NCBI GenBank assembly: GCA_028282325.1
Contig: JANQID010000051.1
Span: 1 to 64,000 of the forward strand
Direction: 5' to 3'
DNA from: Chloroflexaceae bacterium
GTDB lineage: Bacteria; Chloroflexota; Chloroflexia; Chloroflexales; Chloroflexaceae
DNA length: 64,000 bases
Shown: positions 3 through 56,283 of the stretch, piece after piece
How positions within the stretch are numbered: position 1 is the first letter of the stretch
Layout of the letters: each line of letters opens with the position of its first letter
Notes under the pieces: generated by a model
Told to the model about the DNA's origin: nothing
Databases searched by the model: none
What the model saw: only the letters and a program-made list of their open reading frames with translations
Translations under genes and position numbers: made by a program

Positions 3-1220
3 GCCCCCGCGCTGCCGCTGCATCTCGTCGCCGATCTGGGCGCGCTCCTGGCTACGCGCGAACCGGTGCCGGTCGGCAGCGATGCGTACGCGGCATTTCT
101 GCGCGCTGCCGCCGTCACGCCGGCCGTTCGCGCCGCCCGCCTGATCGGCCTGCGCGACCCGGCGACGGTCGCGGCGCTGGCGTACCTTGCTCGCGGCGCG
201 CCCACGCTCGCCGATGATGCGACCTCGGAGACGCTCGACCTTGACCGCCGGCTCGCGCCGCTTTACGCGCACCTGCTCGACCGGTTGCGCGCGCTCGCCG
301 CCGCCGACATACACTTTCTGCACGCACTCGGCCCCGACGCGCTCGCCGCCGCCGACCTCGCCGATTTGCGCGCGATGGTCGAATTGCTCGAATTGCCGCC
401 GCTGGCTCACGATCTGTTCGGCGAGGCGCTGGCGTTCCTGCCCGCGCTCGCCGAGACCGGATCAGCGGTTGCCAGCCAGCTTTACGCAACTGACGGCGTC
501 GGCGGTCTGGCCCGGCATGGCAGCCTCGATATGGCGCTGCCCGGCGAATGGGCGCTGCCCGATGACCTGTTAGCATATCGTTTTCTCAACGGCGAATTGC
601 TGTATTATGGGCGCGAGCGCCCCCCCGAACAGCGCCGGACGCTGGTGTTGCTGCTGGTGCAGGGCGGCGACGCAATGGCCGGCGACGCCGATCTGCTGGC
701 GCGAGCCGCGGCGCTGGCTTTGGCGCGGGCCGCCGAAGCGCGCGGGGCGACGCCGCGCGTCGCCTGGTTCGACACGATATTGCACCCGCCGCAAGGGCTG
801 AGTCGACCTCGCGAGATTGCGGCGTTCATCCAGCAACAGTCGCGCGGCGGCGTCGATCTGCCGCGCGTGCTCGACGCCGCGCTGGCGCACGTACGCAGCC
901 AATCCGCCGATTACGCGCGGATCGAAGTGCAATGGCTCGTGCATACCCAGCTTGGGGCCGACCAACGCGGCGCGGTCGCCGTCCGGGCCCGACGGTTGCG
1001 CAGCCAGGCCGGCAGCAGCGCGCTGTTCCTCTGCGCCGGAGCAACCCCGACCGCGCCACCCCTGGCCGATATGCTGGCGCAACGCTGGGTCGCCCTGGGC
1101 AGCAACGCGCTCCACGATGCGCAGGAGCAGAAAGCAGCAATTCAGGCGCTGCGCAAATTGGCGCAACCGGAAGAACGCGAAACGACGCCAGGCGGCGCGT
1201 ATCACGCATCGATCACGTAG
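3..1220 (+). CDS. vWA-like domain protein, 5' end outside the window
   Basis: The frame is open back to the left edge of the window, so the gene starts upstream; the GTG at 66 is only the first internal start codon. The product is rich in Ala, Leu and Arg. From about position 640 it has a predicted beta-strand followed by GGDAM where the metal site (DxSxS) of a von Willebrand factor A domain would sit, then alternating helices and strands ending near position 1060, so the fold resembles a vWA domain with a degraded metal site. It is followed 43 bases later by another large gene on the same strand. vWA proteins of this kind often work with MoxR-type AAA+ ATPases, but that role is inferred here and could be wrong. 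Confidence 0.5.
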   Translation, partial: APALPLHLVADLGALLATREPVPVGSDAYAAFLRAAAVTPAVRAARLIGLRDPATVAALAYLARGAPTLADDATSETLDLDRRLAPLYAHLLDRLRALAAADIHFLHALGPDALAAADLADLRAMVELLELPPLAHDLFGEALAFLPALAETGSAVASQLYATDGVGGLARHGSLDMALPGEWALPDDLLAYRFLNGELLYYGRERPPEQRRTLVLLLVQGGDAMAGDADLLARAAALALARAAEARGATPRVAWFDTILHPPQGLSRPREIAAFIQQQSRGGVDLPRVLDAALAHVRSQSADYARIEVQWLVHTQLGADQRGAVAVRARRLRSQAGSSALFLCAGATPTAPPLADMLAQRWVALGSNALHDAQEQKAAIQALRKLAQPEERETTPGGAYHASIT

Positions 1221-1263
1221 GGGCCGACGGCGATTGCTGCAACCTGCATCTGGGAACAAAGCT

Positions 1264-3027
1264 ATGACCAACGATTACGCTATCAAGCTGCATGTGCTGA
1301 AAGCCGACGAGCCGCCGCGTTTCTCAGGGCTGCGCCGCGACGTCCGCGCGATGGTGGTCGGCGCCGAAGCGCTGGTCGTGGTGCGCGGGTCACGACGCCA
1401 GGCGGCGTTCCTCGCGGCGCTCAGCCGAACGCTCGATCTGGCGCGCGGCGTCACAATCGAGCGCGTCACGTCCGACCCGAAGCACGCCGATCTCGCGGCG
1501 ACGCTGACGCCGCCCGACGGCGACACACCGTCGTCGTTGTTCTTCGATACGATTCAACGTGCGCTGGCCGCCGCCCGGCTCGGCCCAACCCACGCGCAGG
1601 TCTACGTCGGCGACGGGCGCGTTTTTGTTCCCTACGCCGATCCCGCCGCGCCGTACGGCTATGATGCCCGCGGCGAACCGCCGACGACGGAGCGCACGCT
1701 GCTTCATCCCGACGGCTTGCGGGTACTGCCCACGGCGGAGCCGACGCCGATCCTCGACGCGCTGCTGGATCTGCCGCTCGAACCCGCCCCGCCGGCAGCG
1801 CTGTCTACGCTGGCCGTGTTGGCCGACCGTCGCCTGGCCGCGCTGATCGCCGGGTACGCCCTGCGCCACGGTCTGGGCTACACGGCCCGTTTCGTCGATT
1901 GGCGCCGCGGGGAGACGACAACCCCGGCGGCGCTGTTCGACATCGTGGCGAGCGAGGGGCGCGCCATTCCCGGCTTCGTCGGCGACTTCCTGCGCCGATT
2001 GCCGCGCACGGCGTTGCTGTCCGATGCACTCGAACCGGCGGATCTGGCGCACGAGCCGCCGCGCCGCATCCTGGTCGCCGCCGATCATCGCGCGCCGTTC
2101 TACTTGCCCCACGTCCAGGGCTTGCTGTCCGACACCGCGCTGCTAATCCTGGCAGCGCCGCCGTGGGGCGCTGCGCTGATCAGCCCGCCGCCGCCGCGCC
2201 AGCCGATGCAACAACTGGTTGACGTGGCCGCACCGGTCGCCGCACAGGTTACGATCGGCACGCACACGCCCGCACCGATGCATCTCGAACTGACATTCTG
2301 GCCCGACGCGGCGGCGCGCGGCCCGGTGCATGGCCTGCTGCTCGACGCCACGGCGATCGCGCGGTTACGCCGAATGGCGCGGCGACTGCCCGGCCCATTC
2401 TTCGCCAACGCACGGATCGCGCTCGGCGATGGCGTGGCCATACTGATCGCCGACACCACCTGCACGGCAGTCGCGGGCGTTCCCCTGGGCCAACCGTTGA
2501 ACCGAACCGAGCCGGCGTCGCTACTCGTGCCACGCGGCCTGCACCTGCGCCCCGCCCTACCGCCCGCCTTGCTCGCCACCGCGCTCGATCTGCGCCCGGA
2601 CACACTCACCGTGCTCACGCCGACGCGCCGCTATGACGCGCCGCTGGCAGCGTTCCAACCACTGAGCGCGCTACTGAAACTCGACGCGCCGGCGCAACCC
2701 GTCGCGATCACGCTGCGGCCCGGCCCGCTGCCGCCGCTCGATCTGAGCGACCTCGACGCCAACACGCCCACACCGCAACCAAATGCGCCCCCCGCACCGA
2801 CCACGTCGCCCGTGCCGCCCGCCGCTCCGTCGCGACGCGGCTTGCTCGATCGCGTGCTCAGCAGCAAAACCGCCGCGCCTGAACGCCCGCCGTTCGAGGA
2901 CGAACTGCGCCAGCGCGCCGACGAGCTGCGCCGCCGCGGCGATTACGGAACCGCCGCCGTTTTCTACGATTATCTGAACGAAACGCAGAGAGCGCTGGAA
3001 TGCTATCGGAAAGTGGTGGAGGGCTAA
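1264..3027 (+). CDS. Large uncharacterised protein, partner of the vWA-like gene
   Basis: This 587-residue protein starts at an ATG 43 bases after the preceding gene; upstream codons in the same frame overlap that gene and are not used. I do not recognise the family with certainty. It is mostly alternating short strands and helices, with repeated Pro/Ala-rich segments, no membrane segment and no signal peptide. About residues 495-520 form a Pro/Thr-rich linker, and the last 50 residues resemble one TPR-like helix pair (YGTAAVFYDYL ... ALECYRKVVE). The pairing with a vWA-like protein recalls the ternary MoxR-vWA-third-component conflict systems, in which the third component is often a beta-propeller. 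That assignment is a guess from context. Confidence 0.5.
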   Translation: MTNDYAIKLHVLKADEPPRFSGLRRDVRAMVVGAEALVVVRGSRRQAAFLAALSRTLDLARGVTIERVTSDPKHADLAATLTPPDGDTPSSLFFDTIQRALAAARLGPTHAQVYVGDGRVFVPYADPAAPYGYDARGEPPTTERTLLHPDGLRVLPTAEPTPILDALLDLPLEPAPPAALSTLAVLADRRLAALIAGYALRHGLGYTARFVDWRRGETTTPAALFDIVASEGRAIPGFVGDFLRRLPRTALLSDALEPADLAHEPPRRILVAADHRAPFYLPHVQGLLSDTALLILAAPPWGAALISPPPPRQPMQQLVDVAAPVAAQVTIGTHTPAPMHLELTFWPDAAARGPVHGLLLDATAIARLRRMARRLPGPFFANARIALGDGVAILIADTTCTAVAGVPLGQPLNRTEPASLLVPRGLHLRPALPPALLATALDLRPDTLTVLTPTRRYDAPLAAFQPLSALLKLDAPAQPVAITLRPGPLPPLDLSDLDANTPTPQPNAPPAPTTSPVPPAAPSRRGLLDRVLSSKTAAPERPPFEDELRQRADELRRRGDYGTAAVFYDYLNETQRALECYRKVVEG

Positions 3028-3037
3028 AGCAACGCGG

Positions 3038-3457
3038 CTACATCCACGGATTGACGATCGCCGCCCCGGAGTCGCGGAAATCGTCCGCGTTACGTGTAAC
3101 GAGTGAGAGGTTGCGCTGAAGCGCTTGCGCCGCGATCAGCGAGTCAATCGCCGCCATTCGCCGCCCGCGGCTTTCGAGCGCGCCGACGAGTTGGCCCCAC
3201 AGCAGCATCGTCGCGACATCAATCGACAAGATCCGCCCGCTGAATCGCACCAGCAATTCATCGTCGAGCCAGGCTGCGATCGCTGCGCGGCGGCGCGATT
3301 CGGGCAACTTCTCGATGCCTTTGCGGATTTCTCCGATAGTGATCACGCTGAGATAGACGTTTGCATCGTTAACGCTATCGATCCAGTTCACGACGCGCGG
3401 ATCGGGCTGGCGGGCGATTAACTCCGAAATGATGCAGGTGTCCAACAAATAGTTCAC
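3038..3457 (-). CDS. vapC: VapC-type PIN-domain ribonuclease toxin
   Basis: This 139-residue protein has the usual PIN toxin length. The first acidic residue is in the N-terminal LLDTCIISEL segment (D6), a conserved Glu lies in TIGEIRKGIE, and the third acidic site is in AAIDSLIAAQA followed by LVTRNADDF, which is the typical C-terminal PIN strand. Such proteins cut RNA, often initiator tRNA, using a cluster of acidic residues that hold Mg2+. The ATG overlaps the stop codon of the upstream antitoxin by four bases (ATGA), so the two are translationally coupled. All expected catalytic acids are present and there is no sign of decay. Confidence 0.88.
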   Translation of the reverse strand: MNYLLDTCIISELIARQPDPRVVNWIDSVNDANVYLSVITIGEIRKGIEKLPESRRRAAIAAWLDDELLVRFSGRILSIDVATMLLWGQLVGALESRGRRMAAIDSLIAAQALQRNLSLVTRNADDFRDSGAAIVNPWM

Positions 3458-3708
3458 AACGCGATGTCACCCCGCGTACCGCTGACATCACGCCGCAGGT
3501 CTAGGTCAGCATCAACTAGAGGCGAATCACGAAAAAACGTCGATAGCTTCGTGCGCGCAGCGATCATCGTGCGATAATCGGCATACGACAACACCACCGC
3601 CGTCTCCTCACCGCGCCGGGTTATGACTTGCGGCCCGTGGAGCATCGCCTCATCAACGACCTCGCTCAACTTGTTTTTGGCCTCTTGTAATTGCCAGATA
3701 CGTGACAT
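3454..3708 (-). CDS. Phd/YefM-family antitoxin
   Basis: This 84-residue protein begins MSRIWQLQEAKNKLSEVVDEA, the classic Phd/YefM N-terminus that binds DNA, followed by GPQVITRRGEETAVVLSYADY. The C-terminal tail is acidic and probably wraps the toxin. The start is the ATG at 3708 because a strong ribosome site (AGGAGG) lies just upstream; the longer frame up to 3759 would run into the promoter. It neutralises the downstream VapC-type toxin and probably represses its own operon through the inverted repeat at 3722-3736. Confidence 0.87.
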   Translation of the reverse strand: MSRIWQLQEAKNKLSEVVDEAMLHGPQVITRRGEETAVVLSYADYRTMIAARTKLSTFFRDSPLVDADLDLRRDVSGTRGDIAL

Positions 3709-3721
3709 AGGCCACCTCCTG

Positions 3722-3736
3722 TCTAGTCTGTCTAGA
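3722..3736. promoter_or_regulatory. Inverted repeat, probable antitoxin operator
   Basis: TCTAG (3722-3726) and CTAGA (3732-3736) form an inverted repeat between the -10 box and the ribosome site of the toxin-antitoxin operon. Its position at the transcription start fits autorepression by the antitoxin. This is an inference from position and symmetry only. Confidence 0.5.
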
Positions 3737-3764
3737 TTGTACTCATACCAGGAGTGCATGTCAA
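3736..3764 (-). promoter_or_regulatory. Sigma70-type promoter of the Phd/VapC operon
   Basis: Read on the minus strand, a perfect TTGACA (3759-3764) is separated by exactly 17 bases from TACAAT (3736-3741), 28 bases upstream of the antitoxin ATG. Confidence 0.75.
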
Positions 3765-3806
3765 GCGCCGATTCAAATAAAGCTTAAATAAAAGGTTAGG
3801 CTGTTA

Positions 3807-3861
3807 AGCCTGACGGGTTTTGGAAACATGTCAGGTCTTGGTATACGTCTTTAGGTATACC
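3807..3861. repeat. Two short palindromes after azlD
   Basis: An imperfect palindrome (3807-3838, arms AGCCTGACGGGTTT and AAACATGTCAGGTCT) is followed by a second one (3840-3861, arms GGTATAC and GTATACC). The first belongs to a repeat family also seen near 41527 and 59253. They lie between the convergent 3' side of azlD and the promoter of the toxin-antitoxin pair, and could end transcription, although no T-run follows. Confidence 0.5.
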
Positions 3862-3862
3862 A

Positions 3863-4159
3863 TCAAACCGCCAGCCGCAACAGCCAGAAGGCGATCATAC
3901 CAACCAAGACGCCGATCCAGAGTTGCCGGGTGCGCCAGATCGCGATGGCGGCGATAACGGCGGCAGCAAGGCGCACCGCCCACTCGCCCTGTTGGCCAGG
4001 CAGCGCCGGCGCCACCAGCGCGGCGAACACGGCAATCGGCACGAAGCGCAGAAAGCGCTCCCAAAACGGCGGCACGGCGACATCGCCCAGCAAGACGCCG
4101 GCGAGACGTGGTCCGTACGTCACCACAACCATCCCGGCAATCACTAGCAGCATATTCAT
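3863..4159 (-). CDS. azlD: AzlD-family membrane protein, small subunit of branched-chain amino acid exporter
   Basis: The 98-residue product starts at the ATG at 4159, which overlaps the azlC stop codon (ATGA). It has about four hydrophobic segments and the AzlD pattern TYGPRLAGVLL near the N-terminus and FVPIAVFAALVAPAL in the middle. Together with AzlC it forms a membrane pump for branched-chain amino acids or related compounds. The longer open frame to 4456 only shadows azlC. Confidence 0.85.
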   Translation of the reverse strand: MNMLLVIAGMVVVTYGPRLAGVLLGDVAVPPFWERFLRFVPIAVFAALVAPALPGQQGEWAVRLAAAVIAAIAIWRTRQLWIGVLVGMIAFWLLRLAV

Positions 4160-4881
4160 CGTCGTTCTCCCTCCGGCTGTGTTTCCATCGACTTGCGCGC
4201 CGCAGGCTCGCCGCCCGTCAGCCACGCACCAAGCAGACTGCCCAGCACGCTCGCGATTAGAATCTCCAGCCCGCTGGAGACGAACCGCGCCGCAACCAGC
4301 GCAACCACGCCGGCGAACAGGGCCGTAAACGCATCGACGCGCGTCTGAAGCAGCGGGATGAGCAAGGCCAGAAACGCCAGCGGAAAGATGAAATCCACGC
4401 CCAGACTGGCGGGATCGGGGATGCCCGCGCCGAGCAACGCCCCAATGAACGTACACGCATTCCAGACCGTGAACAGGCTGAGCTCAGCCCCCAGCAAAAA
4501 CGGGAACGTCGCCGCGCGAACCGTCACCGTCACGCCATACGCTTCGTCGGTCAGAAAGAAGGCCGCGATCAGTTTTTGGGGCCAGGTAAGCTGCACCTGG
4601 CGCCCCAGCGAGAGGCCATACAGCAAGTGGCGCAGATTGATCAGAAACGTCGCCAGAACAATCACCGCGCCCGACGCGCCCAGGCTGACCAGGCTCGCCG
4701 CGCTGAATTGCGAGCTGCCGGCGAACACCGCCAGACTCATCAGTTGCGTTTCGCCGATGGTCAAACCGGCGCTGCGTGCAGTGACGGCATACGCCAGGCC
4801 GAATGGGATGACGCCGAGCCAGAGCGGCATCAGCGCACGAAAGCCTGACCAGAACGCCCGAAACGTAGGGCCGGAAAGCAT
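4156..4881 (-). CDS. azlC: AzlC-family branched-chain amino acid exporter, large subunit
   Basis: This 241-residue membrane protein has the AzlC signature: GVIPFGLAYAVTARSAG near the start, FAGSSQFSAA in the second helix and NLRHLLYGLSL in the third. I chose the ATG at 4881, about 10 bases after GGAGG; a TTG at 4887 would overlap the stop codon of the preceding gene. The gene directly follows a GT39-like gene and is coupled to azlD, so three membrane-protein genes share one leftward unit. Substrate specificity cannot be read from sequence. Confidence 0.88.
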   Translation of the reverse strand: MLSGPTFRAFWSGFRALMPLWLGVIPFGLAYAVTARSAGLTIGETQLMSLAVFAGSSQFSAASLVSLGASGAVIVLATFLINLRHLLYGLSLGRQVQLTWPQKLIAAFFLTDEAYGVTVTVRAATFPFLLGAELSLFTVWNACTFIGALLGAGIPDPASLGVDFIFPLAFLALLIPLLQTRVDAFTALFAGVVALVAARFVSSGLEILIASVLGSLLGAWLTGGEPAARKSMETQPEGERR

Positions 4882-4883
4882 CT

Positions 4884-6575
4884 TCAACGTTCCTCCTCAG
4901 GAATATCATAGAGCCAGATCGACCTACCCACTCGCTCAACCGGCTCATAGGCCTTGAGCCAGGCGAAATGATCATACGGCGGCGCGCTCCAGCCGACCTG
5001 GAGGAATTTCACACTGATCGCGATCCAGCCCGTCGTTTTCTCATATGGAACCAGTTCGTGGCGCGGGGGAAAATCAAATCGATCCAGATCAAGGCCCAGA
5101 CTGCCGTTATAGGCGATCGCCACATTGGTCACGTTATGGCGCTTTAACGCGATCGACAGCCGCTTGAGATCCTGCCCCCAGTCGAGATCGCTATCGCCGA
5201 CGATCGTTTCGGGGCGCCCGCCCGCCAGTGGGTTGAAATAGGCCAGATAGTCCGGGTGCGCGACAAACGAACCTGTTACCTGCCAGGCCAACAAAACGAC
5301 CGCCAGCCCGGCGCCGGCGCGCCGCAGTCGGGGCTGCTGCCACAACCAGACCGCTCCATACCCGGCGACGATGGCCAGGAAAGGATAGACCGGGAGCGCC
5401 TGACGCACGCCGTTGTTGACATTGCCGGCAATGGTAATCGCGAAGACGCCGAACGCGGCGGCAATAGGAACGAGCCAGCGCGGCGGGGCGTCACCGGACA
5501 ACACACGACGCACAATCGCGAACCCGCCGAGCAGCAGCAGCGCCAGAAACGGCAGCGGCGTTTTGATCGCAAACGTCACGGGAAAGAAATACCACGACCC
5601 TTCGCTCTGAACGTTGCCGAGAAAGTAGGCCAGGTGTCCCTGGCTGTTGCGATCGAAGAAGCGATACAGACCGTAATACAATTCCGGCGCAGGGACAGGT
5701 GTCGCTTCGACGAAGGCGTATGCGCTGTCGTGGAAAGGCCCGGCGGCGATGACCATCGCTTCGATGTCCTCGGATGGCAGATTCACGGCCTCCTGGATCG
5801 AGCTATACGAAAAGCGATACCCGGCCCATATCGTGAGCAATCCCGCCGCCGCAACCAGAACCGCGCCACCGACCCAATGCCACAGCCGCGGTCGGGCATT
5901 GTCCGGCGCAGGGCGACGCAGCAGCCAGGCCACGCCATAGACCGCGCCGGTCAGGATGCCGGACGCGCCGAAAAACCCGATGGCCGAGAACTTGGTCAGA
6001 ATCGCAGCGCCCCCGGCCAATCCGAGCAGAACGCTTCGAACCACGGTTGGCCGATCGAGCCAGCGATCCAGGGCAAAGACCGCCGCTGCAACAAGCGCAG
6101 CGCACGCCATATCCAGCGTCGCCAGCCCGGCGTGGGCCAGCACAGGCGGCAGCGTGGTAAACAGCAGCAGCGCCGACAGGGCGGCGGCAATCCCGCCATA
6201 GCTGCGCGCCCACGCCGCGACCACCGCGCAGGCGATGATAAAAAACGCCAGCATGCCGCTACGGGCTAGGGTCAGGTTGTGTTCGTAGGCATCGTTTGTG
6301 TGTAAAATAGCGTTGCCCTCATCCCAAAAACCCCAGGCTCCGCTCTCGATGCCGGTTGATCGAACGCCGTCGAGGTAGGGAATCAGCGCACTGACCGCTC
6401 GCGCCAACGGCGGGTGAAACGGCTCATAAGTATAGCGTCCTTTGTCCAGCCATTCCATACCCGCCGCAATATGCGCCGGTTCGTCCCAGGTTTGCCAGAA
6501 AACGCTATAGGTCGCGGATATGCGCAACAGAGCGATGATAACCAGACTGGGGAGCAACAGATAACCGATTCGCAT
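4884..6575 (-). CDS. GT39/ArnT-like integral membrane glycosyltransferase
   Basis: This is a polytopic membrane protein of about 563 residues. The N-terminal outward loop contains TWDEPAHIAAGMEWL and the acidic and His/Pro residues (EPFHPPLARA) expected for a GT-C fold that uses lipid-linked sugar donors, as in ArnT and protein mannosyltransferases. About ten hydrophobic helices follow, then a soluble C-terminal part with GDSDLDWGQDLKRL, a pattern common in this bacterial family. The ATG at 6575 has GAGG upstream; a start at 6629 would overlap the hydrolase gene. The acceptor is unknown. It is co-oriented with the hydrolase upstream and azlCD downstream. Confidence 0.78.
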   Translation of the reverse strand: MRIGYLLLPSLVIIALLRISATYSVFWQTWDEPAHIAAGMEWLDKGRYTYEPFHPPLARAVSALIPYLDGVRSTGIESGAWGFWDEGNAILHTNDAYEHNLTLARSGMLAFFIIACAVVAAWARSYGGIAAALSALLLFTTLPPVLAHAGLATLDMACAALVAAAVFALDRWLDRPTVVRSVLLGLAGGAAILTKFSAIGFFGASGILTGAVYGVAWLLRRPAPDNARPRLWHWVGGAVLVAAAGLLTIWAGYRFSYSSIQEAVNLPSEDIEAMVIAAGPFHDSAYAFVEATPVPAPELYYGLYRFFDRNSQGHLAYFLGNVQSEGSWYFFPVTFAIKTPLPFLALLLLGGFAIVRRVLSGDAPPRWLVPIAAAFGVFAITIAGNVNNGVRQALPVYPFLAIVAGYGAVWLWQQPRLRRAGAGLAVVLLAWQVTGSFVAHPDYLAYFNPLAGGRPETIVGDSDLDWGQDLKRLSIALKRHNVTNVAIAYNGSLGLDLDRFDFPPRHELVPYEKTTGWIAISVKFLQVGWSAPPYDHFAWLKAYEPVERVGRSIWLYDIPEEER

Positions 6576-6612: not shown

Positions 6613-7425
6613 TCAACAATGCCCGTCATATGACTGTCGCGCGAGAAACGCCAGAACGGTTTTGTTAAACTGATCCGGCTGATCGATCGGCGTCAGATGG
6701 CGCGAGTTGGAAATCACCGCCAGCTCGGCGCGCGGCATATGGGCCACAACTTCGGCCTTGGCCGCGATAGGGGTGTAATCTTGATCGCCCGTCACAAAGA
6801 GCGTTGGGCAGCGGATGTCATTGACGCGCCGGGAAACATCCCAGCCCCGTATCGCGCTCAAAGCCGCGCGATACGCTTGATCGTCGTTCATCGCCCACTG
6901 CACCATAAACGCCTGGCGCGCGGCGGCATATTCCGGCCCCGGCAGCAAATGCGTGCCGAGATACTCGCCCATCGCGTGCAGGCTGCGCCAGCGCAAGATG
7001 GCCACACGCCGCAGATAATTCACCACAATGCGCGCGCGATCGAGCAGATTCCCGACCAGCGGCTTGGGTACGCTATTGACGACCACCAGGCTCCGCACCA
7101 GATCCGGCGCATCGAGCGCCAGTTGCAGCGCGACCATACCACCTAGCGAGAGGCCGACGATATGCGCCGGGGCGATTCCCAGCGCATTCAGCAACTTCGC
7201 CGTATCGTCGGCCAACAGCGCGATGCTGTACGGACCGGGCGGGTGCGCCGATTGTCCGTGACCGCGCAGGTCGAAGCGCATAACCCTGTAATTAGCGGCA
7301 AAATGGGAGAGTTGTGAATTCCACGAGCGCGTACCGGCGCCGAGACCGTGGATCAACGCCAGCGGCGGCCCGTCGCCGGTGATCTCATAATAGAGGTCAA
7401 TGCCATTGATATGCAGAAATGACAT
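6613..7425 (-). CDS. Alpha/beta hydrolase
   Basis: The 270-residue protein has a complete alpha/beta hydrolase core: oxyanion segment IHGLGAGTRSW, RFDLRGHGQS, nucleophile elbow GLSLGG, Asp in TGDQDYT and His in SNSRHLTP. It resembles 3-oxoadipate enol-lactonase and general esterases, but the substrate cannot be assigned. It heads the leftward run that continues with the GT39-like gene. Confidence 0.87.
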   Translation of the reverse strand: MSFLHINGIDLYYEITGDGPPLALIHGLGAGTRSWNSQLSHFAANYRVMRFDLRGHGQSAHPPGPYSIALLADDTAKLLNALGIAPAHIVGLSLGGMVALQLALDAPDLVRSLVVVNSVPKPLVGNLLDRARIVVNYLRRVAILRWRSLHAMGEYLGTHLLPGPEYAAARQAFMVQWAMNDDQAYRAALSAIRGWDVSRRVNDIRCPTLFVTGDQDYTPIAAKAEVVAHMPRAELAVISNSRHLTPIDQPDQFNKTVLAFLARQSYDGHC

Positions 7426-7647
7426 GAGAAAGAGAAGCGAAATCCTGCTACAGAATCAGGCATGCCGGGCAAACTTACCTCTATCATACCACCATACTGC
7501 GATGCGGAACAACACAACAGGAGACGCAACGCCGCGCCTCCCGCACGTTATAATGTTCGCACAATCGCAAACACGTTATGTAATTCTACTTCGGCTCTAG
7601 CAGCCAGAAGTTATCGGTCAGCACCGATCTCCAGCTTCCTGCGTTGC

Positions 7648-8256
7648 TTATTGCATCGTACGCAACCACTCGACCAGCGCGCACACGTGGCGTTCAATCC
7701 GCGGCAACGCAGCCTCCGGACTGAGCAGGTGAGCGTCGCTGATGCGCCAGTAGGAGACATGTTCTTGCCAGCGTGGGAAACACTCTTCGACCAGGGGGCG
7801 ATGTTCTGCGGCATCGAGGGCAATAATCAAGAAGGCCGACTCCATATCCGCATCACAAACGCTTTGCGGCATGCGGTCGGCGCCGACAAGCGGAAAACCA
7901 CGCGCTTCCAAGGCGGTAATGATCACCGGTGCGATCGGGCCGACATTGTTGACGCCGCGTTCGATCGCCAGCCCGCGTGAGGTCGCCTGCCAGGAGAGGT
8001 TATACTTCCTGGCCAGTTCATTGAAGATCATCTCGGCGAAGCGGCTACGATAATAATTGCCGGTACAGAGGAACAACACCTGTCTTTGACAACGCGCTCT
8101 GGCCTCAAAAGTTTGCTCGCGCATACTGCGCGCATTTTCCTCGCGCGGGGTCGGAAAACGAAAAGCTGAGTATGCCGTATCAAGAACGGATATCATCCAC
8201 TCCCATACATTCCAGAAACCGCGCGTTCCTATTCTCATTCGCCGTTTCTCCATCAA
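7648..8256 (-). CDS. Low-molecular-weight protein tyrosine phosphatase-like protein
   Basis: The segment VLFLCTGNYYRSRFAE contains the CX5R phosphate loop of low-molecular-weight tyrosine phosphatases and related arsenate reductases. The family Asp near the C-terminus probably lies in RISDAHLLSPE. The N-terminal 60 residues before the loop are not part of the fold, so the true start may be further downstream, for example at an internal Met about 44 codons in. It is separated from mraZ by about 320 bases and is probably transcribed on its own. A phosphatase for an unknown phosphoprotein is the best reading. Confidence 0.7.
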   Translation of the reverse strand: MMEKRRMRIGTRGFWNVWEWMISVLDTAYSAFRFPTPREENARSMREQTFEARARCQRQVLFLCTGNYYRSRFAEMIFNELARKYNLSWQATSRGLAIERGVNNVGPIAPVIITALEARGFPLVGADRMPQSVCDADMESAFLIIALDAAEHRPLVEECFPRWQEHVSYWRISDAHLLSPEAALPRIERHVCALVEWLRTMQ

Positions 8257-12464: not shown

Positions 12465-12665
12465 TTAGGCATCCATCTGAACATCGCAGATCTCTCCGCC
12501 GTCGGACGCCTGAATCTGCTGATGCGCCGCGTCACTTGCATTGAGGGCCGCATTTGCGATACGACCATTATGCGTAGCCGTTGCCTGCTGCTCACCGGCG
12601 CCCCCATTGTGCATACGTATCGATTCAATACGACCACGAGAACGCGCTGTGATGATTTGACTGGA
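12465..12665 (-). other. Three tandem short repeats in the CHAT protein C-terminus
   Basis: The encoded repeats begin SSQIITARSRGRIESIRM, EQQATATHNGRIANAAL and HQQIQASDGGEICDVQM. Each predicts a strand-turn-strand unit with a central G-[RE]-I. The same unit, QQQIIATSGGRIAQVQQ, is in the neighbouring NACHT protein (16577-16645). Confidence 0.7.
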
Positions 12666-13916
12666 ACGAATGCGCGATGCCTGGCGCGGCGCCGCTTGCG
12701 GGCGCATATAGATCGGCTCGGTTCCCCGCGAACGCACATACACCGTGGGCACAAACCAGGACACCCGATCAGTTTCAGCAATATAGAGCGCTCGACGGGC
12801 GTTGCTCACCGCTTGCTGAACGCTCGCGCCTGTGGCAAGCTCGCGATAGAGGCTGCGACTGAAGCTGGCGGCTGCCATAGTGCGCACCGACAACTGCATG
12901 CCAACTACCAGCGGCACTCCGGCAGCGCTCAATGCCGGCCCAATGCCGGTGAGCAATGACTGATCCTGGCAACCGTCGGCGGCGGAGGGAGCGACCATTG
13001 CACCCTGGCATGCATGCAAAAACACCAGACGGGCCTGACTAAACAGGGTTGCGATCATGGCGACGTCGGTCCAGATACCCTGAGCTTTATCATCGAGTAG
13101 CAACGCTCCTTGTCCGGCGTGATAACGCCCATGCCCAAAGTAATGCACAATATCGGGCGTGGTCCAATCCGATTCAAGACGCAGCAGCGCCCGCCGCGTC
13201 GCCGGACTGACTTCCAAGATGGTCGCCTGTCCATTCTCCAACAGCGGCTTCCAGGCCGCCATTCGAGCCTCGCGTTCGATCTGACGCAGCTCCGGCGTTG
13301 TCCCGGCATGGGGGGTAATCGCCAGAATCCGCAACGGGTGGCTGGATCGATACGGAGGCGGCAATGCCTGAGCCAGATCAAGATGGCGCGTGAAGACGAT
13401 CTGACCGCCACGACTAAATAAGAGGGGTGTCGGCTCATCATCCCACAGGAGTTCCCAGGGCAACGCAGCCAGATCAATAGCATCGGCGGGAAAACACATG
13501 CTCAGCATAATCGGCTGAGCCAGCGCAACCGCATGGTCGCGCACTGTATTCAACGCCTGCTTGCCGACCGGATCAGATGTGAGCGCGCGATAGAGCGTTC
13601 GTCCAACCTGGCGCGGCGTATTGGCATGCACATGCCCCTCGGCGTTGTTCCACAACCCCAACCGTTCCAAACGCTCCTGTTCATCGAGCGTAAAAGCAAA
13701 GCGTCGGTGTTGTTCGATCGTCACCGGCGTTGGATAATACGGATCTTGCAAGACATCCAACGCCTTGAGAACCAGCGCCAGATCCGCACTATCGTAGGGA
13801 GGATTGACGATGCTCTGACGTACGCCGATGACATCCGCTTCCCAGCGCGCAATAGTTCCATCGGCAGCGTAACTGAACACGAGTTTGAGATCGATTGAAT
13901 GAGGCGTTCGAATCAT
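12465..13916 (-). CDS. CHAT-domain (caspase-like) peptidase with C-terminal repeats
   Basis: The C-terminal half of the core is a CHAT peptidase, a caspase relative. The catalytic His is H262 in VHYFGHG and the catalytic Cys is C303 in FLHACQGA (numbering from the ATG at 13916; a GTG at 13934 is a possible alternative). The N-terminal part includes ALPWELLWD, typical for CHAT proteins. After the peptidase, residues 418-483 hold three copies of a 20-residue pattern, Q-x-I-x-A-x-x-x-G-R-I-x-x-V. The NACHT protein encoded directly upstream has one copy of the same pattern. CHAT proteases are regulated executioners in several defence systems; the target here is unknown. It lies 35 bases after the NACHT gene. 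Confidence 0.85.
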   Translation of the reverse strand: MIRTPHSIDLKLVFSYAADGTIARWEADVIGVRQSIVNPPYDSADLALVLKALDVLQDPYYPTPVTIEQHRRFAFTLDEQERLERLGLWNNAEGHVHANTPRQVGRTLYRALTSDPVGKQALNTVRDHAVALAQPIMLSMCFPADAIDLAALPWELLWDDEPTPLLFSRGGQIVFTRHLDLAQALPPPYRSSHPLRILAITPHAGTTPELRQIEREARMAAWKPLLENGQATILEVSPATRRALLRLESDWTTPDIVHYFGHGRYHAGQGALLLDDKAQGIWTDVAMIATLFSQARLVFLHACQGAMVAPSAADGCQDQSLLTGIGPALSAAGVPLVVGMQLSVRTMAAASFSRSLYRELATGASVQQAVSNARRALYIAETDRVSWFVPTVYVRSRGTEPIYMRPQAAPRQASRIRSSQIITARSRGRIESIRMHNGGAGEQQATATHNGRIANAALNASDAAHQQIQASDGGEICDVQMDA

Positions 13917-13951
13917 CGTCGTATCCCTGTTCACTAGTATTTATTGCATAG

Positions 13952-16900
13952 TTAAGGCTTACGAACGCGTACGACGCGGAAGCCAAGCAGGTTATAGCGG
14001 TATCCTGGGTTGAACCAGTATCGTGCGCTGCACTCGAGGTAATCGGCTTTCCAGTTGAATGCCCCGCCACGAATGATCGGGCGGTCGTGCGGAGAGACTT
14101 CACGGCAAGGAGCCTGCTCGAACGGTTGCTCCCAGAGCGTTGCGGTCCATTCCCAGACGTTGCCCGCCAGATCGTGCGCTCCGCATACCGCCGGGCCATT
14201 TGGGAAACATCCAACCGGGGCGGGAGCGCGCAAGCCGATAGCTTCATAATTGGCCCGCTCCGAGTCGGGCGACTCATCGCCCCACGGATAGCGGCGGCGA
14301 TCTGTGTGCCGCGCCGCGCGTTCCCATTCCAGCGAGGTGGGCAATCGCAGTCTCTCGGTCGAAGAAAGCCAACCTTCACGGTGACCGATATGGGTCAACC
14401 AGTCACAATAGGCAACCGCTTCATACCACGACACGCCGACGACCGGCTGGGCCGGGCTATTAAATTGCGCAGTTTTCCACAAACCCGGCTGGTTAATCGG
14501 CCCCTCCGTCTCATCTTCAAGCGGTGAAGGCTGGCTGCCATTCTGCAAAAACGCCCAGCCGGAGGGCGTCCACCAGCGTTGCATTTCGTAACCGCCAGAA
14601 TCGACGAAGCGCCGATATTCCGCGTTGGTGACGGGATAGCGCGCGATCCAGCACATGTACGGCAATGTCACCGGTTGAAGATCGGCGCTGTGGATTGCAC
14701 CGTTGTTCCGGCCATTGTGATAATGGTTGTTCCGTGTCGGCTGATCGGCGCTATACCAGAAGTCGCCAGCTTCGAGTACACACCAGTAGGTTTCGCCAGA
14801 CACATCCTCAGCGTTGCTCTGGCCGAGAACGCGAGGATCGCCGAGCTGGCCCAACGTATGACCGCCGGCAACCCGCGTATTGAGCGGCGTCGCCGGATCG
14901 CGCAACGTGGCGATCAAGCGTACGACAACTTCCCGCCAGCCGCGCTGAGTTGCGATATTGACGCCAATATCGATCAGGCACTCGCTGGCGAGCACAACCG
15001 GACGGCCCCGTGTATCGGCAGTAGTCGGCGCAGCGAGCAAGTGCAGCAGGATGCGCTGGGCTTCGCGTTGGGGGGAAGCGGCGACCGCCAGCCGCAGCAC
15101 TTCGCGCCAGCGCGGATCAAGCACATAGGCATGCATCAATGCATCGGGATCAGGGATCGTCACCGATTCAACCAGACCGCGTGCAGCCAGATATTCTTCA
15201 AACGTCAAGTGAATAAACCCGAAACGACGATAGCCGCGTTCCTGGATCAGCCCTGTGTCGTGACGCATCAGCTCGATGAAATTGTGGGCCAGACGCCGTG
15301 CTTGCCCGCGTGACATGCCATCGGTCTGCATCAGTGTATCGGCAATATTCTTTTCCAAATCGCTTTGCTCGACTTCGCCGCCCGGCTGGGTGGCGTGAAT
15401 CCAGAGCGCAGCCGGGCCAAGCAGATTCACGACCAATCGCTCATCAATGCTCTCGTTACCGAGATACAGATTGATCTCGCGTCCGGAGAGCGAGCGGGTG
15501 CGATTCCAGGTCTCCGCCAGCGCTTCAACGCACAATCGATAGAGATCAACGCGCCGGTTGGGCAAGCGTGCGCCCTGATTGTGAATAAGCGCCAGGATGG
15601 TGAGCAAGAGCGGCTTGCGGGCCAGATCGGTAATCCCCGGATCGGCGAAGACCGCGCTGCTCAGCGAATTGGCGTGGATCTGAACACGGCGTTCGAGATC
15701 GACCTGGGCTTCCTGGCGTTCGCGCGCCGTCGGATTATTCGACAATGCCGAGGAGAACGCGCCCTCGTAAGTATGACTCCAGCGCTCAACAAAGAACCGA
15801 ATATCGTCATCGCTCAAAGGTTGGATCATCACGCGTGTGAACAATACCTCATCAAGCGGCGCATTGTCATAACCGGCGATCCGGCTGGTAGCAATAAAAC
15901 GATTGCCGAACTCATCCCATTCACGGACAAACGCCTCGATGCAATGGACAATATCCATTCGATCCATGCGCACCTCATCGAGACCGTCCAGCAATACCAG
16001 ACCGTAGCCACGCTCAAGCGCACACCGAAATAACGGAACGTAATCAGGTTGAGAGAGGCCGGTGTAATAGGCTTGCAGATAATCGAGCGGCGCAATATCC
16101 GCGTTGCCCGACCGCGACCGCGCCTCGGCGAATGCGGCTATCGGAAAAAAGATCGGCAGCCAGCTCTCGCTCAAACCCAGGCGCTCGTACATCTCTCCGT
16201 TTGCAAACGACAGCAAGATGTAGCGGATGAGGGTGCTTTTTCCTGTGCCGGGATCACCCAGCACAACGATTAAGGGAACGTCGCGAACATAGGTATGCAA
16301 CGGTGCGCTCGACGGCGGCGTCACCACATCCGACACATCCAATTCATAGCGTCCGAACCGCATCGTACGACGCTCTGGACGCCTGGGAGGCGTGGAATGC
16401 TGACAGGCCCCCGTAAGCGGCACATAGATGTCGGCGAGCGCCATACGGCTGACGTGGCGCACTTGCAAAACGCCGCGAACATCAAGCGTTCGGAAGGCAT
16501 CCAGCAGGAACGACCGATAGCGCACAAAGAGCGATGCCACATCGGGTTCAATGATCGGGGCGACGGCATAGAGATCGCCATGCACGATCGTTTGCTGCAC
16601 CTGGGCGATCCGACCGCCAGATGTCGCGATAATTTGCTGTTGCAGCGCTTTAGATTGCTCGCTCGCAGCATGATGCCGAAGCTTATCGATCAACGCGCGG
16701 GCGTCCTCATCGGGAAGCAGGTGGCGCAACCGTGGTTGCGAAACGACAGTGCGCGGCAAAAGCGTGCTCAGAAAGAGTCGCAGCGGCGGGGACACGACAT
16801 TCCAAGGAGAAATAGGCTCGGCCTGTTGGATTGCGCGGTAGCGCACGCGGTGGCGATACAGATCGAGCAGCGCCCCTGTATTGATCGCATTTCCCAGGAG

Positions 16901-17197
16901 CATCTCGCTGACGGCAAGCTGGCGAAAAGCGCGTGTGTCCGGTTGATCATCAGCCAGCAGATTCAGCGCGGCTTCAGCAGCCTGGCGATCGGGAAAATTT
17001 TTGCGCAGCATCGAAGCGGCACGATCCACAGCATCGGCAAATGCTTCGGCATAACGCGGTTCGCCCAAGCGAGCGACGCCACTGAGCGCGGCGTCGAGAT
17101 CGGCGCTCCGCGACTCATCGACTGACGCCAGACGATCGCGGAGCAGCGCAGCGGACTGAGCCAGATCATGGGCAAGGTTGCAGGCAAGATCACTCAT
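13952..17197 (-). CDS. NACHT NTPase (NLR-like) with C-terminal FGE-sulfatase domain
   Basis: The protein has 1081 residues from the ATG at 17197. Residues 1-180 are helical and unknown. Residues 186-207 carry the repeat shared with the CHAT protein. The NACHT NTPase follows: Walker A GDPGTGKS (314-321), Walker B LVLLDGLDEV (400-409), and RFIATSR after it (433-439). FIHLTFEEYLAA (660-671) is the typical end of a NACHT module, and a HEAT-like stretch follows. Residues 800-1081 are an FGE-sulfatase (formylglycine-generating enzyme-like) domain: YPVTNAEYRRF, GVSWYEAVAYCDWL, RLPTSLEWERAAR, NVWEW, IRGGAF, GFRVVR. In such fusions this domain probably senses a ligand. The start overlaps the stop of the small upstream ORF. 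A role as a defence sensor is inferred. Confidence 0.87.
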   Translation of the reverse strand: MSDLACNLAHDLAQSAALLRDRLASVDESRSADLDAALSGVARLGEPRYAEAFADAVDRAASMLRKNFPDRQAAEAALNLLADDQPDTRAFRQLAVSEMLLGNAINTGALLDLYRHRVRYRAIQQAEPISPWNVVSPPLRLFLSTLLPRTVVSQPRLRHLLPDEDARALIDKLRHHAASEQSKALQQQIIATSGGRIAQVQQTIVHGDLYAVAPIIEPDVASLFVRYRSFLLDAFRTLDVRGVLQVRHVSRMALADIYVPLTGACQHSTPPRRPERRTMRFGRYELDVSDVVTPPSSAPLHTYVRDVPLIVVLGDPGTGKSTLIRYILLSFANGEMYERLGLSESWLPIFFPIAAFAEARSRSGNADIAPLDYLQAYYTGLSQPDYVPLFRCALERGYGLVLLDGLDEVRMDRMDIVHCIEAFVREWDEFGNRFIATSRIAGYDNAPLDEVLFTRVMIQPLSDDDIRFFVERWSHTYEGAFSSALSNNPTARERQEAQVDLERRVQIHANSLSSAVFADPGITDLARKPLLLTILALIHNQGARLPNRRVDLYRLCVEALAETWNRTRSLSGREINLYLGNESIDERLVVNLLGPAALWIHATQPGGEVEQSDLEKNIADTLMQTDGMSRGQARRLAHNFIELMRHDTGLIQERGYRRFGFIHLTFEEYLAARGLVESVTIPDPDALMHAYVLDPRWREVLRLAVAASPQREAQRILLHLLAAPTTADTRGRPVVLASECLIDIGVNIATQRGWREVVVRLIATLRDPATPLNTRVAGGHTLGQLGDPRVLGQSNAEDVSGETYWCVLEAGDFWYSADQPTRNNHYHNGRNNGAIHSADLQPVTLPYMCWIARYPVTNAEYRRFVDSGGYEMQRWWTPSGWAFLQNGSQPSPLEDETEGPINQPGLWKTAQFNSPAQPVVGVSWYEAVAYCDWLTHIGHREGWLSSTERLRLPTSLEWERAARHTDRRRYPWGDESPDSERANYEAIGLRAPAPVGCFPNGPAVCGAHDLAGNVWEWTATLWEQPFEQAPCREVSPHDRPIIRGGAFNWKADYLECSARYWFNPGYRYNLLGFRVVRVRKP
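16577..16645 (-). other. Short repeat in the NACHT protein, shared with the CHAT protein
   Basis: The encoded segment ALQQQIIATSGGRIAQVQQ sits between the N-terminal helical region and the NACHT domain. It matches the CHAT C-terminal repeats at the Q, I, A, G-[RE]-I and V/I positions. Confidence 0.65.
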
Positions 17198-17457
17198 CAC
17201 AACGCCTCCTCCGCGACCGCGCATTCCTGGCTTAACAGATCACGCAGCAGTTGGGCGTCACGATCGGCGTGATCGCAAGACCGATCGACCGGAGGGCCCG
17301 ACCCGACAGCGTAAGAAGGCTGGTCGAACAACGCCTGCCGACTATCTGCGCCGAGCAGCGCTTGTAGGCGTTGCCGAGCGATATATGCACTTCCGGATCG
17401 AGCATCGCGACGAGCAGAGCGAGAGAGAGGCGAAAATTGATTGGATAAATGTCTCAT
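17197..17457 (-). CDS. Small hypothetical protein heading the NACHT operon
   Basis: An 86-residue protein is predicted from an ATG at 17457 with AGAGGA seven bases upstream. It is Arg, Ser and Ala-rich (RHLSNQFSPLSRSARRDARSG) and ends in an acidic helix. No domain is recognised. Its TGA overlaps the NACHT start (GTGATGA), which supports real translation and coupling. Confidence 0.6.
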   Translation of the reverse strand: MRHLSNQFSPLSRSARRDARSGSAYIARQRLQALLGADSRQALFDQPSYAVGSGPPVDRSCDHADRDAQLLRDLLSQECAVAEEAL

Positions 17458-24026: not shown

Positions 24027-24220
24027 AACCACCACTCCTTTCTCGATGATGAGAGTAAGCTCGTCGCTGAGACGCTACTCGGTTCTCAGTTCATCACATT
24101 GAGGCGGCAAGCACTGACCCGAAATCAACGCGATCTTGCATCATAGTGCAAATTGGTTTACTCGTAGCATAACATACACACTCATCAGAGTCTAGAATCG
24201 ATCTCATTACGATATGTATC

Positions 24221-24359
24221 TACCAAACCATATGGGAGACACCGCATGGTGTCATTCTGAGCGCAGCGAAGAATCTCAGATTCCCACAACGCCGAGACCC
24301 TTCACGCTGCCTACGGCTCCGTTCAGGGTGACATGCGGCATACTCATCATCGTTTGGTA
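24221..24359 (+). repeat. MITE-like HSERSEES repeat, copy 1
   Basis: A 139-base element is bounded by TACCAAAC (24221-24228) and its inverse GTTTGGTA (24352-24359). The interior includes CATTCTGAGCGCAGCGAAGA, which in one frame reads HSERSEES. Copies 2 and 3 are at 55931-56070 and 59769-59894. It lies directly before the peptidase gene and is joined to it in one open frame. Confidence 0.75.
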
Positions 24360-50983: not shown

Positions 50984-51240
50984 GTAGTGCCGTCTTCAGG
51001 TAATTGAAGACTGTGGACCGCCTAAAGGCGGCACTACGCGAGATCTGAGAGCACCTAGCGCCGTCTGCAGGCGGTGGTGACGAACAACACGTAGTACCGT
51101 CTTTAGGCGGTGGCAGAGCCGTCAGGCGATTAGACTGTGGACCGCCTGAAGGCAGCACCACGCGAGATCGAAGAGGAGGACCGCCTGAAGGCGGCACTAC
51201 GCGAGATCTGAGAGCACCTAGCGCCGTCTGCAGGCGGTGG
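50984..51240. repeat. Cluster of REP-like palindromes, left flank of the RAYT gene
   Basis: At least six palindromic units with core CCGCCT-AAGGCGGCACTAC or its inverse are seen (for example 50984-51000, 51018-51037, 51057-51077, 51091-51113, 51142-51161, 51181-51200). A 61-base block at 51018-51078 recurs with one mismatch at 51181-51241. Further units lie at 51860-51880, 51961-51980 and 52041-52062 on the other side. Confidence 0.85.
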
Positions 51241-51249
51241 TTCAGTTCA

Positions 51250-55924: not shown

Positions 55925-55930
55925 AGACGC

Positions 55931-56070
55931 TACCAAACAATAGATGGAGACACCGCATGCGGTCATTCTGAGCGCAGCGAAGAATCTCGGATTCCCAGGT
56001 CATCGAGACCCTTCCCTCCGCCTGCGGCTCCGTTCAGGGTGACATGCAGCATACGCATCATCGTTTGGTA
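55931..56070 (+). repeat. MITE-like HSERSEES repeat, copy 2
   Basis: A 140-base copy with ends TACCAAAC (55931-55938) and GTTTGGTA (56063-56070). It lies directly upstream of the DUF104 antitoxin gene and in the intergenic space up to 56283, which holds nothing else recognisable. Confidence 0.75.
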
Positions 56071-56283
56071 GCCTCCTTTTGCTCAGTATACCACGACAGC
56101 ATTCGTTTGATCGTCATTGACAAATGGAATACGCTTCAGCGTATTGTGAATATCCCCGCGTCGGCGTATCCGCGCATTTACGCAACGGCGTTCAACGACT
56201 TCCGCGGAGGGGTTCCTGTGGTATAGTGAAATTGACGCACGACCTGCCGACGAGCGGTGCAACACGGCGAGAGGAGCAGAGCG

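What the first reader, a model, noticed from the sequence alone, without database searches (positions are those of the whole stretch)
12465..16645. Shared short motif in the NACHT and CHAT proteins, possibly an amyloid-type signalling motif
The CHAT C-terminus has three repeats of Q-x-I-x-A-x-x-x-G-[RE]-I-x-x-V and the NACHT protein has one copy just before its NTPase. In fungi and some bacteria, NLR proteins and their effectors, encoded side by side, share short amyloid motifs by which the activated NLR templates the effector. The Q/I-rich strand-turn-strand pattern with central Gly fits that idea.
Basis: partly seen in the sequence, partly recalled or inferred. Interest (0 to 1): 0.8.

Follow-up and report, generated by a model that had tools for sequence, protein, structure and literature searches.

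The report
Shared β-rung motif couples NACHT to CHAT
A bacterial NLR-like sensor and the caspase-like protease encoded next to it carry the same short repeat, which probably stacks like a functional amyloid so that the activated sensor switches the protease on; this adds a new motif type to a known class of bacterial immune signalling.

Summary
In this Chloroflexales genome a CHAT protease gene (12465-13934, -) and a NACHT-FGE gene (13952-17224, -) lie 17 bp apart. The CHAT tail has three copies, the NACHT N-terminal region one copy, of Q-x-[IVA]-x-A-x(3,4)-G-x-[IV]-x2-[VIA]. The sharing is conserved: 17 of 17 evaluable CHAT relatives with tandem C-terminal copies have an adjacent NACHT-FGE gene, and all 12 readable NACHT N-termini carry the motif; five CHAT relatives without a NACHT neighbour lack it. 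In one genome a NACHT from another clade carries the motif type of its CHAT partner. The motif also sits on a BELL-like protein and a small adaptor beside NACHT genes. With an alignment, AlphaFold2 folds the tail into three stacked β rungs, one per copy (pLDDT 81.5). One copy on the receptor and two or three on the effector is the layout of fungal NWD2/HET-S and close to bacterial BASS systems. Amyloid templating is the best reading but untested; rung stacking without a fibre is the main rival. Interpretation largely supported; a new variant of a known kind.

The parts
12465..13934 (-). CHAT (caspase-like) protease gene, 489 aa, predicted effector
   Evidence: ORF; PF12770 E=1.7e-26, aa 109-389; PADLOC 'chat' E=4.7e-68; HxxGHG and ACxxA motifs conserved across relatives, H268 and C309 invariant
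12768..13610 (-). CHAT domain
   Evidence: Pfam aa 109-389
12468..12737 (-). C-terminal tail of CHAT (aa 400-489): variable linker, then three motif copies; modelled as three beta rungs
   Evidence: alignments; AlphaFold2 with 16-row alignment, pLDDT 81.5, pTM 0.63
12612..12665 (-). motif copy C1 (SSQIITARSRGRIESIRM)
12540..12593 (-). motif copy C2 (EQQATATHNGRIANAALN), degenerate at two hydrophobic positions
12474..12524 (-). motif copy C3 (HQQIQASDGGEICDVQM), fits the strict pattern
13935..13951 (-). 17-bp gap between NACHT and CHAT; same order and strand in the relatives, so probably one operon
13952..17224 (-). NACHT-FGE receptor gene (1090 aa as listed; probable true start ATG at 17197, after GGAGGAGG, aligned with MSDLA starts of orthologs)
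   Evidence: ORF; PF05729 E=4.9e-8 and PF03781 E=5.5e-44; start context; alignment
16574..16645 (-). motif copy N1 in NACHT (LQQQIIATSGGRIAQVQQTIVHGD, aa 194-217)
16670..17224 (-). N-terminal domain of NACHT (about aa 1-185), no Pfam family
15773..16273 (-). NACHT NTPase domain
16235..16258 (-). Walker A GDPGTGKS (aa 323-330)
13967..14656 (-). C-terminal FGE-sulfatase / C-type-lectin-fold domain, predicted sensor
   Evidence: PF03781 aa 857-1086; fold class of DGR-diversified sensors (PMC10907252)

Best explanation
This is a two-gene NLR-effector pair. The FGE/C-lectin domain of the NACHT protein senses an unknown trigger and the NACHT NTPase oligomerises (inferred from the families). Oligomerisation brings many single motif copies together; these nucleate a beta-solenoid, one rung per copy (rung fold predicted, nucleation inferred). 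That template converts the flexible CHAT tail, whose two or three tandem copies form the next rungs. CHAT domains are thereby clustered and activated by proximity, and cleave targets, probably as an abortive-infection or cell-death response (inferred). Shown here: the shared, conserved, co-lost and swappable motif and its modular spread. Predicted: the stacked-rung fold. Inferred: amyloid templating, protease activation and biological role.
For: Motif conserved in CHAT tails and NACHT N-terminal regions of about 15 orthologous pairs from 7-8 genera, while the CHAT linker before it varies in length and sequence. Profile-profile P = 5.7e-7 between effector and receptor copies; leave-lineage-out hits at the same site in 15 of 15. 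17 of 17 evaluable CHAT relatives with tandem motifs have an adjacent same-strand NACHT-FGE gene, and 12 of 12 readable NACHT N-termini carry the motif; five relatives 48-50% identical without a NACHT neighbour (four titled Chloroflexus) have none. Partner swap: the G013 NACHT belongs with 100/100 support to the clade of short-motif NACHTs, yet has the long motif of its CHAT partner. Modularity: in L171 a 193-aa BELL-like protein and a 146-aa adaptor each carry two C-terminal copies beside two NACHT-FGE genes with related motifs. A shorter motif sub-type is shared by other NACHT/CHAT neighbours. AlphaFold2: three beta rungs, pLDDT 83-95 in the motif blocks, pTM 0.63; its weak structural neighbours are beta-solenoids, including the CsgA (Z 4.6) and HELLF (Z 2.8) fibrils. 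One copy on the receptor and two on the effector is the published HET-S/NWD2 layout (PMC4518210); BASS motifs are reported with CHAT effectors too (PMC7889193).
Against: No fibril or seeding data. AlphaFold2 over-predicts beta-solenoids for (near-)perfect repeats (PMC11795689); here copies are imperfect and a single-sequence run gave helices at pLDDT 66, so the beta fold comes from the alignment, but this is no proof. Structural matches are weak (Foldseek best E 0.3; Z below 5). Within the long-motif family, receptor and effector copies are not significantly more alike in cognate than in non-cognate pairs (permutation p 0.09-0.27, n = 8). The motif is not at the extreme N-terminus of NACHT, as in classic BASS receptors. 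Loss in Chloroflexus may be one phylogenetic event, so co-loss may count once.
Confidence: 0.6

Rival explanations
1. The motif is a homotypic rung-stacking or beta-augmentation interface in a finite complex: the NACHT rung caps or extends a pre-folded solenoid tail of CHAT inside a ring-shaped signalosome, with no self-propagating amyloid.
For: AlphaFold2 already folds the monomeric tail into a compact three-rung solenoid; best structural matches include ordinary beta-helical proteins; NACHT proteins form closed oligomers (established family knowledge). Explains conservation and co-loss equally well.
Against: Copy numbers and gene layout match HET-S/NWD2, where the mechanism is templating; effector copies are tandem, C-terminal and behind a variable linker, as in prion-forming tails.
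Confidence: 0.25
2. The tail regulates CHAT in cis (autoinhibitory or substrate-like), and the NACHT copy mimics it and displaces it, by competition rather than assembly.
For: The tail follows the protease domain directly; the NACHT copy resembles one tail copy.
Against: Does not explain two or three tandem copies, or the same motif on BELL-like and adaptor proteins without a CHAT domain, or its position at the CHAT N-terminus in L114 and L108.
Confidence: 0.08
3. The motif is a generic beta-helix or linker repeat, and its presence in both genes is coincidence or ordinary protein structure.
For: Beta-helix-like model; weak profile hits (E 0.005-0.013) in a long secreted protein of G025/G014.
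Against: Those hits are at chance level; strong hits are confined to NACHT/CHAT/BELL-like/adaptor proteins; perfect association with NACHT neighbours; pattern statistics.
Confidence: 0.04

Closest known systems
Bacterial amyloid signalling sequences (BASS; Dyrka et al. 2020, as summarised in PMC7889193 and PMC8086366)
   Same: Adjacent NLR and effector genes; short shared motif on the NLR side and at the effector C-terminus; multicellular (filamentous) bacteria; BASS motifs also occur, less often, with CHAT; BASS4 is often repeated on the effector side.
   Different: Main effector is CHAT, not BELL; receptor motif lies at about aa 190-215 behind a helical domain; effector carries two or three tandem copies; assignment to one of the ten families not testable here (profiles not held; the primary paper is not in the library).
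NWD2/HET-S and HET-s-related amyloid motifs (PMC4518210)
   Same: One copy on the NACHT receptor, two or more pseudo-repeats at the effector C-terminus, unit of about 21-23 residues, beta-solenoid (here predicted) with one rung per copy, adjacent genes.
   Different: No hit to the Pfam HET-S model; bacterial; effector is a CHAT protease, not a HeLo pore-former; three copies in the window.
DGR-diversified NACHT-CLec/FGE antigen sensors of multicellular bacteria (Dore et al. 2024, PMC10907252)
   Same: NACHT fused to a C-terminal FGE/CLec sensor, filamentous Chloroflexi included; that paper notes N-terminal extensions without characterised domains; one relative (L089/L210) carries the motif and a DGR.
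   Different: No template repeat for the window receptor in its own genome and its FGE end is conserved; amyloid motifs are not discussed there beyond citing Dyrka et al..
Effector-associated domain (EAD)/Death-like/TRADD-N adaptors (Kaur et al. 2021, PMC8195603)
   Same: Same logic: a homotypic adaptor links a STAND NTPase sensor to a protease effector.
   Different: Those are folded domains; this is a short tandem beta motif with no Pfam match.

Membership tests
BASS-type amyloid signalling pair | NLR-like gene and effector gene adjacent | tested here: met
   17-bp gap in the window; 17 of 17 evaluable relatives
BASS-type amyloid signalling pair | same short motif on the NLR N-terminal side and the effector C-terminus | tested here: met
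   note that the motif is at aa 194-217, not at the very N-terminus
BASS-type amyloid signalling pair | effector with BELL or, less often, CHAT or TIR domain | tested here: met
   PF12770 E=1.7e-26; literature statement PMC7889193
BASS-type amyloid signalling pair | sequence match to one of the BASS1-10 profiles | not testable with these tools
   profiles and primary paper not held; no Pfam family in the tail
BASS-type amyloid signalling pair | beta-arch/beta-solenoid fold | tested here: inconclusive
   AlphaFold2 three-rung model, pLDDT 81.5; known AF2 bias for repeats
BASS-type amyloid signalling pair | motif forms amyloid and cross-seeds partner | not testable with these tools
   needs experiment
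BASS-type amyloid signalling pair | multicellular/filamentous host | tested here: met
   hits titled Chloroflexales: Ca. Chloroploca, Ca. Viridilinea, Oscillochloris, Chloroflexaceae; filamentous lifestyle from PMC10907252
HET-s-related motif (HRAM) | match to the Pfam HET-S motif model | tested here: not met
   no such hit at E<=1 in either protein or in the tail alone
HET-s-related motif (HRAM) | one copy on the NLR, two pseudo-repeats on the effector | tested here: met
   two copies in most relatives, three in the window and G013; layout from PMC4518210
DGR-diversified antigen sensor | template repeat with adenine-specific differences to the 3' end of the gene | tested here: not met
   for the window gene: no second copy found in the own genome (draft assembly). 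Met for paralog L118 and for L089

The most novel reading that the evidence does not exclude
In filamentous Chloroflexales, hypermutable (DGR-diversified) NACHT-FGE receptors signal through a prion-like beta-solenoid relay to caspase-like CHAT proteases: an antigen-sensor repertoire plugged into an amyloid cell-death switch. One locus (L089/L210) has all parts in a row: NACHT with motif and variable repeat, reverse transcriptase, template repeat, CHAT with three motif copies.
Probability: 0.35. Interest if true: 0.85.

Novelty: new variant of a known kind. Interest (0 to 1): 0.62.

Why it matters
It would give a clean system for a stated open question, whether prokaryotic NLRs signal by amyloid templating in defence: a two-gene pair with a 14-residue core motif, natural loss (Chloroflexus) and natural partner swap (G013), and a protease rather than a pore-former as output. 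It also offers a reading for the uncharacterised N-terminal extensions of DGR-diversified NACHT sensors, and shows HET-S-like stoichiometry (one rung on the receptor, two or three on the effector) outside fungi.

Tried and rejected
AlphaFold2 on the tail without an alignment gave low-confidence helices; kept only as a control. A test for concerted divergence of receptor and effector copies inside the long-motif family was not significant. No template repeat for the window FGE end was found in the genome, and the FGE end is conserved in orthologs, so the window receptor itself is not called a DGR target. Hits in the secreted protein of L173/L174 and in G067, G037, G096 and G138 were dismissed as chance-level. 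A PDB sequence search with the tail profile found nothing (best E 0.31). HET-s itself did not appear as a structural neighbour; only HELLF, CsgA and FapC fibrils did, weakly, so no fold identity is claimed. BLASTP between the L171 BELL-like protein and L276 failed; the link rests on reciprocal single-genome hits at E 3e-4 and 1.8e-4. Papers sought for this motif in Chloroflexi gave none.
Full report
Observation. The two genes are as described: CHAT (12465-13934, minus; PF12770, E=1.7e-26) and NACHT-FGE (13952-17224, minus; PF05729 and PF03781). The probable NACHT start is 17197, where GGAGGAGG precedes ATG-AGT-GAT and the protein start MSDLA matches the orthologs. The CHAT tail has three motif copies and NACHT one. 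The NACHT copy (aa 194-217) precedes the P-loop (aa 323) by about 106 residues.

More than chance. The relaxed pattern is expected 0.006 times in the two proteins and occurs four times; in 409,755 residues of ORFs from the window and related loci it occurs 17 times, 16 of them in paired CHAT or NACHT proteins. The local alignment of CHAT tail and NACHT N-terminus beats all but 4 of 5000 shuffles. A profile of effector copies matches a profile of receptor copies with P = 5.7e-7. Effector HMMs built without the lineage under test put their best hit on the motif in 15 of 15 NACHT proteins; in ten of these at most one shuffle in 400 does as well, in two (G025, G014) four and two do, and in three (G026, G002, G018) the score itself is weak.

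Conservation in pairs. Searches of 61 relatives found orthologous CHAT and NACHT genes. Their CHAT tails end in two copies, for example ARQMVLARGGQIRALRIQGRAGSAQRVVALDGGHISGVSMEDRS, and their NACHT proteins hold one, for example GQSIVATSGASIAQVRQTIVHGDLY. The linker between CHAT domain and copies varies greatly. Named loci include Ca. Chloroploca, Ca. Viridilinea, Oscillochloris and other Chloroflexales. Of 18 CHAT relatives with tandem C-terminal copies, 17 have an adjacent same-strand NACHT-FGE gene and the eighteenth is cut by its contig end; all 12 readable NACHT N-termini carry the motif. Five relatives at 48-50% identity without a NACHT neighbour (four titled Chloroflexus) have a different tail. 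This co-loss may be a single event.

Partner swap. In G013 (L089/L210) the CHAT ortholog, with three copies, sits beside a NACHT only 32% identical to the window's. In a tree of the NTPase core that NACHT falls, with 100/100 support, among NACHTs several of which carry a shorter motif, yet it has the long motif QQAIQASDGSQIDHVRQ. The motif type follows the effector, as expected of a pairing code.

Modularity. A profile of the tails finds, outside the CHAT orthologs, one locus in the neighbouring family f3 (L171): a 193-aa BELL-like helical protein and a 146-aa protein, each ending in two copies, beside two NACHT-FGE genes with related motifs near their N-termini. The 193-aa protein and a 211-aa Chloroflexus ORF with a BELL-like helical layout (my reading) find each other at E 3e-4 and 1.8e-4, which is suggestive only. 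A different CHAT protein in Ca. Chloroploca sp. Khr17 (L172) also ends in two copies. Outside the order nothing convincing appears among 400 genomes of the phylum. A shorter motif is shared by NACHT and CHAT in L114 (VQQKMEAETITHAQQ with VQQKIAGRRVRGVTQ) and in L108. Other BELL-like/NACHT pairs share yet other motifs (L301, L302/L303), as expected of BASS systems.

Fold. With 16 aligned tails AlphaFold2 gives three repeated strand sets, E25-31/E40-43, E48-54/E59-66 and E72-77/E82-89, one set per motif copy, mean pLDDT 81.5, pTM 0.63. The weak structural neighbours are beta-solenoids and functional-amyloid fibrils: antigen 43b, CsgA (Z 4.6), HELLF (Z 2.8), bactofilin. AlphaFold2 is known to produce false beta-solenoids for near-perfect repeats (PMC11795689). 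Here the copies are imperfect and the single-sequence run did not give beta structure, which makes that artefact less likely but not impossible.

Mechanism. Receptor sensing by the FGE domain, NTP-driven oligomerisation of NACHT, nucleation of a stacked beta structure by clustered single copies, recruitment of CHAT tails and proximity activation of the protease is the simplest chain (inference from the families). One copy on the receptor and two on the effector is the published layout of NWD2/HET-S (PMC4518210), and BASS motifs are reported with CHAT effectors (PMC7889193). Catalytic His and Cys of CHAT are conserved in all relatives. Trigger, substrate and outcome are unknown.

Membership. 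It meets the architectural features of BASS systems; the sequence-family test could not be run because the ten profiles are not held. It is not an HRAM by Pfam. Hence 'new variant of a known kind': it works like BASS and HET-S, and is probably an additional motif family with tandem copies on a protease effector.

Link to hypermutation. In the own genome a paralogous NACHT-FGE (contig C49, L118) has a reverse transcriptase, a template repeat and a variable repeat with mismatches mostly at template adenines; L089/L210 shows the same in a motif-bearing NACHT whose CHAT partner follows. DGRs acting on NACHT sensors in multicellular bacteria are known (PMC10907252). The window receptor itself shows no template repeat.

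Noticed in passing
L118 (G000:C49:28000-37338), RT 1983-3170 (-), TR about 1468-1547, VR 3224-3304: Diversity-generating retroelement in the window's own genome, targeting the FGE end of a NACHT paralog (57% identical to the window's NACHT); 12 of 18 mismatches lie at template adenines.
   Followed up: partly
L089 / L210 (CALANA010000220.1), NACHT 1129-4245, RT 4381-5463, TR 5903-5987, CHAT 6762-8219: All in a row: DGR-diversified NACHT-FGE with the motif, reverse transcriptase, template repeat, CHAT with three motif copies; 13 of 18 mismatches at template adenines.
   Followed up: partly
L114 343-3288 and 5033-6361; L108 6179-19209: A shorter shared motif (about Q-x-[MI]-x-A-x-x-[IV]-x-x-[AV]-x-Q) in NACHT-FGE proteins and near the N-terminus of the neighbouring CHAT proteins.
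   Followed up: partly
L171 4243-11213 (family f3, same order): Four neighbouring genes with the motif or a relative of it: BELL-like 193 aa, small 146-aa adaptor, and two NACHT-FGE receptors.
   Followed up: partly
L301 332-3535 with 3820-4473; L302 1-3318 with 3718-4278; L303 1-3813 with 4640-5200: BELL-like effectors beside NACHT-like P-loop genes sharing other motifs (TQIITGHSNVGVAIAGNQYGHIFIG / HNQIIGGNANVGTALAGDLHGNLTIG; YNIVIAEATGVAIGDGARVEQ / YNVRIDKASGLAIGDNARVEQ): probable further BASS pairs in Chloroflexales.
   Followed up: no
L172 265-1587 (Ca. Chloroploca sp. Khr17): An unrelated CHAT protein ends in two copies of the long motif, next to a second CHAT gene and an nSTAND1-WD40 gene; no receptor copy recognised there.
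   Followed up: no
L118, L120, L117 (NACHT paralogs) and L108 17221-19209 (CHAT): N-termini with a hydrophobic Ala/Gly-rich helix (EPLTTALLATITAAAGAIAGGIAEAVGDDVW...), possibly integrated membrane-active domains; the homologous N-terminal domain of the window NACHT lacks the hydrophobic stretch.
   Followed up: no
window 24220-24341, 55930-56077, 59774-59895: Three related copies of a ~120-150 bp repeat (86-96% identical, one inverted), possibly ends of a mobile element.
   Followed up: no
window 51015-51078 and 51178-51241: Direct repeat of 64 bp, 98% identical.
   Followed up: no
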